From an uncultured Eubacteriales bacterium (lineage in GTDB: Bacteria > Bacillota > Clostridia > Peptostreptococcales > Anaerovoracaceae): a stretch of DNA of 54,946 nt. The notes under the pieces are model-generated. The model was not told the DNA's origin and ran no database searches. It was given only the letters and a program-made list of their open reading frames with translations. Location of the stretch: assembly GCA_902795135.1 (NCBI GenBank), contig CADBJW010000023.1, positions 42,399 through 97,344 of the forward strand. The letters are read 5' to 3'. A program made the position numbers and the translations under genes. Position 1 is the first letter of the stretch. Each line of letters starts with the position of its first letter. Shown here piece by piece: positions 26,187 through 28,089 of the stretch.

Positions 26187-26386
26187 TGTCGGGTGAAAAA
26201 TAAATGATTAGAAGTCATGTTAGATAACTGTTGAAATTGCAGTATCCAGTCTGGTTTCTAATCATTTTGTTTTTCAAAAATCGATGAAATCAAGATGATT
26301 ACAAGCCAGAATTATAATTAAACCAAATACGTAATGAAAGTTGAATGATTAGAAGTCGGAGAATTGCAATATATTTGATTAGAAGT
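26187..26386 (+). repeat. Left-end subterminal motif array
   Basis: GATTAGAAGT occurs at 26206-26215, 26347-26356 and 26377-26386, with a degenerate GATTACAAGC near 26296 and an inverted TTTCTAATCA at 26255-26264. Spacing is irregular, which fits protein-binding sites rather than a CRISPR array. Confidence 0.6.
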
Positions 26387-26735
26387 TTGAACAGTAGGAA
26401 GAATTAATCTTACTGCAGTTTTTCATTGACATTGCTGCAAGCATATGCGCTTGTTCATGACATAATCCGTAAATATTTCTATGGTATGTGAATATTTCAA
26501 TAAGCAGTCGTCGATTATATCCGCATCAAAAGAAATCCACAAATAGCATTCCTATCGTCTTTTATATATTGCTGTGTAGAATCGTTATTTAGGTATATTT
26601 TACGGACTGAACATAAATTACGATGGAACATAATAAAAGTGGTATAATAAGAGTGACAAATGGAATCAAATTTAGAAGACAGCTTATTAGACTGGCATAT
26701 ATAGTATTAACACTTTGATCGGTACAAAATGCACT

Positions 26736-26771
26736 GTTGAATGACCCTCCGAATTCAGCGGGTCGTTCAAC
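26736..26771 (+). repeat. Palindromic repeat P1, perfect copy d
   Basis: GTTGAATGACCC (26736-26747) pairs with GGGTCGTTCAAC (26760-26771) around TCCGAATTCAGC. The 36-bp unit is identical to that at 26996. No T-run follows, so it is not a simple terminator. Confidence 0.8.
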
Positions 26772-26810
26772 CTTGACTCGCGCGACTCATTTTTTTGATA
26801 AGCAGCAGGA

Positions 26811-26945
26811 AATCTGAGTCACATGGCTCGGATTTTAAGGTGCTATCCCGATTTCCGAGTCATATTGTCTACAGCTTAGAGAATCCGGCCAAGAAACTCG
26901 TTTTCTCCTGTCATACCATTAAATCTGAGTCTCTTGACTCAGAAA
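26811..26945. repeat. Palindromic repeat Q copies
   Basis: AATCTGAGTC-ACATG-GCTCGGATT (from 26811) and ATCTGAGTC-TCTT-GACTCAGA (26923-26942) are inverted repeats of one family. A third half copy ATTCTGAGTC follows near 26963. A perfect 24-bp member is at 54913-54936. Confidence 0.65.
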
Positions 26946-26995
26946 ATGGGGTGAGATGGTAAATTCTGAGTCTTTGGAGAAAACGCACTCTTGAA

Positions 26996-27031
26996 GTTGA
27001 ATGACCCTCCGAATTCAGCGGGTCGTTCAAC
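26996..27031 (+). repeat. Palindromic repeat P1, perfect copy e
   Basis: This 36-bp unit is identical to the one at 26736-26771, 260 bp away. It sits directly at the junction with a truncated coding fragment. Confidence 0.8.
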
Positions 27032-27035
27032 GGAG

Positions 27036-27140
27036 TCTAATCCTGATTTAAATAAAAATGTTGTTCTAGAGTCTTTAAAAGAACAAGAATTATTACTTCG
27101 AAAGAGTCTGACTGAATCAGGCTATCCACCAAATGGATAA
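27036..27140 (+). pseudogene. C-terminal coding remnant upstream of the DUF4176 gene
   Basis: From just after palindrome P1 a frame reads SNPDLNKNVVLESLKEQ then ELLLRKSLTESGYPPNG and stops at TAA 27138-27140. The composition is protein-like, the stop lies 15 bp before the next start codon, and there is no start codon or ribosome-binding site. It looks like the surviving C-terminus of a gene that once preceded the DUF4176 gene and was cut off by the repeat region. Genes before DUF4176 are often type VII secretion substrates or their partners, but this fragment is too short to assign. Confidence 0.45.
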
Positions 27141-27155
27141 GAAAGGAGTTTAACG

Positions 27156-27761
27156 ATGGAAACATTAACTAAGAAGGAATATTTACCTCCAGGCACGATA
27201 TTGCGGACAAAAAAAGGTAATGTTAAGGTTATGATAATTGGTTATAATGCTCTTGGGGAGAGAACCGGTAAAACTTTTGATTATGGAATTTGTCAGTATC
27301 CGGATGGTTTAAATAGCCTTGGTAGTGAAACTATAAATAACGAAGATATAGCAGAAATTTTTGCTTTGGGTTATTATGACAAGGAGAACGAAGATGTTAT
27401 AAAAAATATTGTGAACAAATATAATATAGGAACAAGGAAGTTTAAGAGTCAGAGCGAATATACTGCTCCTAATCACATATTACCTATGGGAACAATTATA
27501 CGAAGTTATGACCAAGAACTGTATATGATTGTAGATTTTTTACCACTCTTAGCAGATAATACTTTGCGTGACTATACAGTGTATAGATATCCGAATGGCG
27601 AATTTTATGATTGTATTAATCAAGATGAAATTACTGAGGTTATATCAATGGGATTTATAGACAAAAAGTGTTACAAAAATTTAAGAGCTATGCCTCAGGT
27701 TATGGATAGGATTAAAAGAGAACATGAGGCTGGTACAATAAAACCAGAAAAAAGAAGATAG
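27156..27761 (+). CDS. Tandem DUF4176 protein (type VII secretion-associated family)
   Basis: This 201-residue protein consists of two DUF4176-like domains. The first (about 8-90) has LPPGTILRTKKGNVKVMIIGY and ends EDIAEIFALGY. The second (about 105-175) has LPMGTIIRSYDQELYMIVDF and ends DEITEVISMGF. DUF4176 proteins usually sit in type VII secretion or LXG-toxin loci of Firmicutes and are cytoplasmic. AAAGGAG precedes the ATG. Base composition is clearly more AT-rich than the surface-protein and htpG neighbours, and it is the only intact gene inside the transposon-like element, so it is probably acquired cargo. No type VII machinery is visible in the window, so its present role is unknown. 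Confidence 0.75.
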   Translation: METLTKKEYLPPGTILRTKKGNVKVMIIGYNALGERTGKTFDYGICQYPDGLNSLGSETINNEDIAEIFALGYYDKENEDVIKNIVNKYNIGTRKFKSQSEYTAPNHILPMGTIIRSYDQELYMIVDFLPLLADNTLRDYTVYRYPNGEFYDCINQDEITEVISMGFIDKKCYKNLRAMPQVMDRIKREHEAGTIKPEKRR

Positions 27762-27808
27762 ATGAAAAAGAAAGGAAAAGATTATTCACGTGCGACGTGC
27801 TTATTATA

Positions 27809-27840
27809 GCCATCTCATTATTAGTGAGGTGGCTGTTTTG
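27809..27840 (+). terminator. Terminator after the DUF4176 gene
   Basis: GCCATCTCA pairs with TGAGGTGGC around TTATTAG, followed by TGTTTTG. It ends the cargo transcript just before the right-end motif array. Confidence 0.65.
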
Positions 27841-27849
27841 TTGGAAGAA

Positions 27850-28089
27850 AACTCCGGTTTATAATCAAATAGAATGAACAAATACTCTGGCTTCTAATCA
27901 AAAAAAGTTCTGATTTTGCAAAATAGAGCGCGGTTTCTAATCAATTATTTATTCATAAACAAGCGATCAGTGGCAATTATCAAGTTTCTAATCAAATTGG
28001 ATGACGCAATAGAAACGTTGATATCAGTGAGGTTCAGATTTCTAATCATTTACGTTTCATTTTTCTAATCGAAAGTTTTTCACCAAACA
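27850..28089 (-). repeat. Right-end subterminal motif array
   Basis: TTTCTAATCA-type motifs occur at 27891 (CTTCTAATCA), 27934, 27985, 28039 and 28062, with a weaker TTATAATCAAA near 27858. The terminus TTTTTCACCAAACA ends at 28089. Motif orientation is opposite to the left array, as expected for transposon ends. Confidence 0.62.

What the first reader, a model, noticed from the sequence alone, without database searches (positions are those of the whole stretch)
26187..28089. Transposon-like element with Tn7-like ends but no transposase
Inverted ends TGTnnGGTGAAAAAnnnnnGATTAGAA with several inward GATTAGAA-type motifs on each side are the end architecture of multi-site DDE transposons (Tn7, Tn552, Mu relatives). 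The 1.9-kb interior has no transposase and one cargo gene. It would need a helper in trans. It is inserted between a surface-protein gene and the CIRCE-controlled operon.
Basis: partly seen in the sequence, partly recalled or inferred. Interest (0 to 1): 0.8.

Follow-up and report, generated by a model that had tools for sequence, protein, structure and literature searches.

The report
Transposase-less transposon carrying one gene
A 1.9-kb stretch of bacterial DNA has the paired, multi-site ends of a Tn7-type jumping element but no jumping enzyme of its own, and carries a single gene related to helpers of secreted antibacterial toxins; it looks like a passenger that needs another element's enzyme, which is a known kind of thing.

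Summary
26187-28089 is bounded by inverted TGTnnGGTGAAAAAnnnnnGATTAGAA ends. Eleven copies of a bipartite ~26-bp site (tGAAA-n7-tGATTAGAArYCtGA) lie in its outer ~204 bp (left, five, one inverted) and ~237 bp (right, six). The interior (element GC 0.34; 2-kb flanks 0.49 and 0.46) holds one intact gene, a 201-aa tandem DUF4176 protein (family of LXG-toxin chaperones), and no transposase. Terminus and site spacing agree with published Tn7/Tn402/Tn5053-type ends. Best reading: a non-autonomous element of that type, needing a TnsB/TniA-like enzyme in trans. Not shown: no second copy, helper, empty site or target duplication was found. The flanks AATCG/GATGC are not a repeat; the own genome (91% complete) has no rve or Mu-transpos_C match; the patterns tried did not find the ends in the GTDB contigs, viral contigs or sampled relatives. 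Mobility is inferred from anatomy alone, and this copy may be a stranded or rearranged remnant. Helper-dependent, tni-defective Tn402/Tn5053 elements are known, so this is a new member of a known kind. The new points are an unmatched site sequence and an orphan T7SS-chaperone-like cargo in a genome with no detectable LXG or WXG100 protein.

The parts
26187..28089 (.). whole element, 1903 bp
   Evidence: inverted ends and paired site arrays; GC 0.339, against 0.491 and 0.460 in the 2 kb left and right
26187..26213 (+). left terminus TGTCGGGTGAAAAATAAATGATTAGAA
   Evidence: 20 of 27 identical to the right terminus
28063..28089 (-). right terminus TGTTTGGTGAAAAACTTTCGATTAGAA (read inward)
26194..26219 (+). 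putative transposase-binding site L1
   Evidence: matrix score 26.5
26250..26275 (-). putative binding site L2, inverted (points outward)
   Evidence: matrix score 29.2
26285..26310 (+). putative binding site L3 (GATTACAA)
   Evidence: matrix score 28.4
26335..26360 (+). putative binding site L4
   Evidence: matrix score 28.2
26365..26390 (+). putative binding site L5
   Evidence: matrix score 28.5
28057..28082 (-). putative binding site R1
   Evidence: matrix score 20.0
28034..28059 (-). putative binding site R2
   Evidence: matrix score 29.8
27980..28005 (-). putative binding site R3
   Evidence: matrix score 24.3
27929..27954 (-). putative binding site R4
   Evidence: matrix score 23.1
27886..27911 (-). 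putative binding site R5
   Evidence: matrix score 26.1
27853..27878 (-). putative binding site R6 (GATTATAA)
   Evidence: matrix score 25.3
27156..27761 (+). cargo gene, 201 aa, two DUF4176 (Ltc-chaperone family) domains
   Evidence: Pfam PF13780 E 3.7e-23, two stretches; two separate domain hits in the own-genome scan; PDB 9dcs_A DUF4176 protein E 3.2e-7
27806..27836 (+). terminator-like hairpin after the cargo gene
   Evidence: 14 pairs followed by a T-rich tail
26772..26995 (+). nested 224-bp stretch, pieces of which recur in the genome (probably not part of the original element)
   Evidence: pieces match the ends of contigs C27 (98 bp, 100%), C28 and C19 (54 bp, 94%); the unit's limits are inferred from where those matches stop
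26736..26771 (.). 36-bp hairpin sequence, first copy
   Evidence: identical to 26996-27031, which folds at -18 kcal/mol, z -5.15
26996..27031 (.). 36-bp hairpin sequence, second copy
   Evidence: relatives of it elsewhere in the genome

Best explanation
A small non-autonomous transposon of the multi-site DDE kind (Tn7/Tn402/Tn5053-like). Shown: inverted TGT termini and 5 + 6 copies of a bipartite site confined, within this window, to the two ends, around one intact cargo gene and no transposase. Inferred: a TnsB/TniA-like transposase encoded elsewhere (not found in this assembly) binds the sites, pairs the ends, cuts at the TGT/ACA termini and joins the segment to new DNA, probably with an AAA+ partner. 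The cargo gene, a tandem DUF4176 protein, is carried passively or gives some benefit tied to LXG toxins of type VII secretion. The missing target duplication suggests that this copy is old, was rearranged after insertion, or is a remnant left by internal deletion of a larger element.
For: Termini and arrays. The site is bipartite, with information at tGAAA and at tGATTAGAArYCtGA. [quoted passage not shown] PMC10201428 (passages) describes an 8-bp TG-starting terminus next to the first site; here the first site starts at position 8. In 173 distinct held sequences (1,002,215 bases) an opposed-array scan for any 8-mer rang only at this element (window plus three loci that overlap it) and in two viral contigs fetched because they carry GATTAGAA arrays (L138, a 12-bp tandem repeat, and L153, TGATTAATCAATCA-rich; neither has these ends). 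A low-GC island coincides with the element. No rve or Mu-transpos_C match in the own genome. tni-defective elements moved in trans are described in PMC7765201 (passages).
Against: No target duplication: AATCG / GATGC agree at 2 of 5 positions. Single copy in the genome. No helper with these ends by the patterns and collections tried. The 12 Mu-transpos_C stretches from 11 family genomes do not carry this motif as an array. No empty site could be read. Published Tn7-like elements mostly carry their tns genes and are far larger.
Confidence: 0.72

Rival explanations
1. The arrays are binding sites of a regulator or nucleoid-type protein that controls the DUF4176 gene and/or the neighbouring genes, not transposon ends.
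For: Only one copy, no helper, no empty site, no target duplication; one site is in the opposite orientation.
Against: The two arrays are near mirror images that share an outermost TGTnnGGTGAAAAA terminus at the edges of a low-GC island. The right array lies behind the cargo gene's terminator-like hairpin. No other place in this genome matched the three-site or end patterns.
Confidence: 0.1
2. A non-autonomous relative of another DDE element with repeated end motifs (IS21-like, or a Mu-like phage remnant) rather than of Tn7/Tn402.
For: IS21 and Mu ends also start with TG and hold repeated sites (recalled); without a helper the family cannot be fixed. No rve match exists in the own genome either way.
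Against: Eleven sites spread over about 200-240 bp at each end, with an ~8-bp terminus before the first site, fit the published descriptions of Tn7-like ends; IS21 and Mu ends were not compared here.
Confidence: 0.13
3. An internally deleted, immobile remnant of a larger autonomous Tn7-like element, or two ends from different copies brought together by recombination (overlaps with the main explanation).
For: No target duplication; genome-dispersed repeats nested inside; no trace of tns genes is needed if they were deleted.
Against: All 11 sites and both termini are still well kept; ten of the 61 short frames listed around the element were searched and none reached a Pfam cut-off, so no transposase trace was seen.
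Confidence: 0.3

Closest known systems
tni-defective Tn402/Tn5053-family elements (class 1 integrons such as In0/In2; Tn6606)
   Same: Keep inverted ends, lack a complete transposition module, carry cargo, and rely on transposition functions in trans (PMC7765201, passages).
   Different: Those have known helpers, 5-bp target duplications and res-site targets; here none of these was found. Their site sequences were not compared in a call.
Tn7-like transposons (Tn7, CASTs)
   Same: Arrays of ~20-bp transposase-binding sites just inside both ends, TG terminus, ~8-bp spacing to the first site.
   Different: Those are defined through tnsB, usually carry tnsC and tnsD, and have median lengths of 14-29 kb; here 1.9 kb with no tns genes, and 5 + 6 sites instead of the 3 + 4 of Tn7.
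MITE-like mobile insertion cassettes (terminal repeats around a passenger gene, no transposase)
   Same: Same layout of ends plus passenger gene (papers seen as a search listing only; definition partly recalled).
   Different: Described cassettes have simple terminal repeats (recalled); here there are multi-site arrays.
Ltc chaperones (formerly DUF4176) of LXG toxins
   Same: The cargo protein belongs to Pfam DUF4176; PMC13355648 calls this family Ltc chaperones of a subset of LXG toxins (passages).
   Different: Here two domains in tandem and alone, with no LXG or WXG100 match in the genome.

Membership tests
Tn7-like / Tn402-like transposon | Inward arrays of ~20-bp sites within both ends | tested here: met
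   5 left (one inverted) and 6 right sites; criterion from PMC8649781 passages
Tn7-like / Tn402-like transposon | TG(T) terminus about 8 bp before the first site, at both ends | tested here: met
   criterion from PMC10201428 passages
Tn7-like / Tn402-like transposon | TnsB/TniA-type DDE transposase in the element or genome | tested here: not met
   no PF00665 and no PF09299 match in the own genome, which is 91% complete; no coding trace seen in the interior
Tn7-like / Tn402-like transposon | 5-bp target-site duplication | tested here: not met
   AATCG / GATGC
Tn7-like / Tn402-like transposon | Related elements sharing the end sequence | tested here: not met
   limited to the patterns and samples used
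Tn7-like / Tn402-like transposon | Occupied versus empty site | tested here: inconclusive
   in 5 relatives read, the region upstream of hsp20 differs or the contig ends there
Non-autonomous (helper-dependent) transposon | Transposition by an enzyme supplied in trans | not testable with these tools
   needs a helper and an experiment
DUF4176 / Ltc chaperone | Sequence match over the family's cut-off | tested here: met
   81.8 bits against a cut-off of 25
DUF4176 / Ltc chaperone | Linked LXG toxin and type VII secretion genes | tested here: not met
   no LXG or WXG100 match in the own genome; by eye such linkage is seen in family relatives G330 and G271, not in G317

The most novel reading that the evidence does not exclude
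The ends belong to an undescribed branch of multi-site DDE transposons with near-symmetric 5 + 6-site ends, whose small helper-dependent members ferry single genes. Here the cargo is an orphan tandem Ltc-type chaperone, which could act on LXG toxins of other bacteria or of an incoming element (for example by binding them) in a host in which no type VII toxins were detected.
Probability: 0.1. Interest if true: 0.55.

Novelty: new member of a known kind. Interest (0 to 1): 0.36.

Why it matters
If confirmed it shows that transposase-less Tn7/Tn402-type carriers, best known from class 1 integrons in Gram-negative bacteria, also occur as very small single-gene elements in other bacteria (the organism here was not named), and that genes of type VII toxin biology can travel alone on them. 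It also shows that paired site arrays alone can reveal such elements, which searches anchored on the transposase gene miss.

Tried and rejected
Other copies. The end pattern in the own genome with up to 3 mismatches gave only the two ends (the reversed control pattern gave 2 chance matches). In 149 relatives with up to 2 mismatches, 8 of 149 genomes matched including the own one; the other 7 loci have no array. GTDB genome contigs, one exact relaxed pattern: 19 contigs, none with a second GATTANAA within 400 bp. Viral contigs: 6 contigs with the end pattern, none with an array; 26 with three GATTAGAA, none with these ends by site positions, though L138 and L153 rang in the opposed-array scan with other 8-mers and proved to be simple or palindromic repeats; 1 with two extended sites, which did not ring in that scan; 3 with a single extended site and no second one scoring above 15; 0 with the last pattern. 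The cargo protein in viral contigs: 3 stretches matched a peptide pattern, none confirmed. Order, degenerate three-site pattern: 24 of 393 genomes including the own one, with the reversed control ringing at a similar rate; none of the 30 loci it returned scores above 15 on the site matrix except those of the own genome. Phylum, strict three-site pattern: 1 of 398, the own genome. Whole element by BLAST in 349 family genomes: 6 matched including the own one, the others by 25-39-bp pieces; the tool scored only two candidates per genome, so weak relatives may be missed. The one piece over the left array lies at the start of an unrelated gene. Plasmids: none by DNA or protein. Phages: one weak DUF4176 protein, 34% over 43% of the query.

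Helper. Mu-transpos_C was found in 11 of 247 family genomes (12 places); all 12 stretches were fetched and none has a GATTANAA array. Four of the 12 printed some other repeated 9-mer (L093, L099, L101, L104). A looser scan found no opposed arrays in any of the 12, so that method gave no positive control there; most of these contigs are only about 4-6 kb long.

Empty site. hsp20 matches in 27 of 49 genus genomes including the own one; upstream DNA was read for 5 (G031, G013, G044, G003, G045), and contigs end 104 bp (G031) and 317 bp (G013) upstream in the two nearest.

Others. Structure of the cargo: single-sequence model too poor to use (mean pLDDT 38). Rfam: four matches, all below their gathering scores. 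tRNA near the site: none. Promoter-like sites are at chance level (11 against 10.3). Searches of print for transposase-less Tn7-like or Tn402-like elements: (listings); only open-licence PMC papers are searched, so absence from print is not claimed.

Full report
OBSERVATION. The sequence at 26187-28089 is as described. The two termini, read inward, are TGTCGGGTGAAAAATAAATGATTAGAA and TGTTTGGTGAAAAACTTTCGATTAGAA. Nine of the window's 11 exact GATTAGAA octamers lie inside the element, plus two one-base variants. Measured from each terminus, the octamers start at 20, 70 (inverted), 111, 161 and 191 on the left and at 20, 43, 97, 148, 191 and 224 on the right. Aligning the 11 sites shows a bipartite motif: tGAAA, about seven loose bases, then tGATTAGAArYCtGA. 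All 11 score 20.0-29.8 on the matrix made from them, and nothing else in 54.9 kb exceeds 8.5. Of 2000 dinucleotide shuffles, one reached the observed count of 8 and one reached 6, both with runs of T; the only top 8-mer at 4 or more that was not a homopolymer had a count of 4. An opposed-array scan of 173 distinct held sequences (1,002,215 bases, enriched for this motif by the way they were fetched) rang only at this element and in two viral contigs chosen for GATTAGAA arrays.

ANATOMY. GC is 0.339 in the element (0.318 without the nested repeat) against 0.491 and 0.460 in the 2 kb on either side. The only long frame is a 201-aa protein with a ribosome-binding sequence before its start (by eye) and a terminator-like hairpin after it. 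It matches Pfam DUF4176 at 3.7e-23 with two stretches and PDB 9dcs_A at 3.2e-7. Ten of the 61 short frames listed in and around the element were searched, and none gave a match over a Pfam cut-off. Between the left array and the gene lies a 224-bp stretch (26772-26995) flanked by two identical 36-bp hairpin sequences; pieces of it recur at the ends of contigs C19, C27 and C28, and the hairpin recurs elsewhere in the genome. The element has therefore probably been resident in this lineage long enough to be hit by, or to take up, host repeats (inference). On the left lies a 2221-aa surface-type protein gene whose stop is 23 bp before the terminus; on the right a CIRCE, hsp20 and htpG.

WHAT IT IS. 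A survey of 6,549 Tn7-like transposons calls arrays of ~20-bp inverted repeats inside both ends a general feature that unites them, with outermost sites a median 12 bp from the border (PMC8649781, passages). Work on VchCAST describes an 8-bp terminus starting with TG before the first binding site (PMC10201428, passages). This element meets both descriptions. It fails three others: no transposase, no 5-bp duplication (AATCG/GATGC) and no sister copies found. The own genome (2.08 Mb, 91% complete) has no rve and no Mu-transpos_C match. In the same taxonomic family, 11 of 247 genomes have Mu-transpos_C, none of the 11 in the same genus, and the 12 stretches fetched lack the motif as an array. The end or array patterns did not find a relative in 149 relatives, in the GTDB contig collection (one exact pattern), in viral contigs (five pattern scans), or in 393 order-level and 398 phylum-level genomes apart from the own one. 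BLAST of the whole element against 349 family genomes found only 25-39-bp pieces outside the own genome, with two candidates scored per genome. A relative whose ends have drifted further would have escaped all of these.

HOW IT WOULD WORK. By analogy with tni-defective Tn402/Tn5053 elements, which move when tni functions are supplied in trans (PMC7765201, passages), a TnsB/TniA-like enzyme from another element would bind the arrays, pair the ends and move the segment. That step is inference. The lack of a duplication means that this copy may be old, rearranged, or an internal-deletion remnant. I put 0.72 on a non-autonomous multi-site DDE element of this type in the broad sense, remnants included.

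CARGO. DUF4176 proteins are called Ltc chaperones of a subset of LXG toxins in PMC13355648 (passages); an earlier paper says they are often found among type VII secretion genes (PMC9600955, passages). DUF4176 occurs in 4 of 247 family genomes including the own one. Of the other three, G330 and (by the frame that follows) G271 look type VII-linked by eye, and G317 does not. The own genome has neither LXG nor WXG100 matches, so the cargo is an orphan here. What it does is unknown; binding a foreign LXG toxin is speculation.

VERDICT. A real and well-formed structure. Helper-dependent carriers of this kind are known, so novelty is that of a new member.

Noticed in passing
window 26736-27031: A 224-bp stretch (26772-26995) sits between two identical 36-bp palindromic sequences; pieces of it end contigs C19, C27 and C28. 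It looks like a MITE-type repeat inserted with, or next to, a 36-bp hairpin duplication.
   Followed up: partly
L018 102, 5456, 7785, 8661; window 18122; L174: The 36-bp hairpin (GTTGAATGACCC...GGGTCGTTCAAC) belongs to a dispersed repeat family of this lineage, with a match also in the same-genus genome G031.
   Followed up: partly
L018 1172-5419: A paralogue of the large surface protein left of the element; its 3' end is 80% identical over 85 bp, and a 36-bp hairpin follows its stop codon after about 37 bp.
   Followed up: no
L167 and L168: In family genome G271 two contigs end in the same ~950-bp DUF4176 + next-gene block (95% identical), which suggests a duplicated cassette.
   Followed up: no
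L101 4137-4280: A Mu-transpos_C contig of a family relative (G281) carries its own repeated motif CGGATTTGGGA, a possible end array of another multi-site transposon.
   Followed up: no
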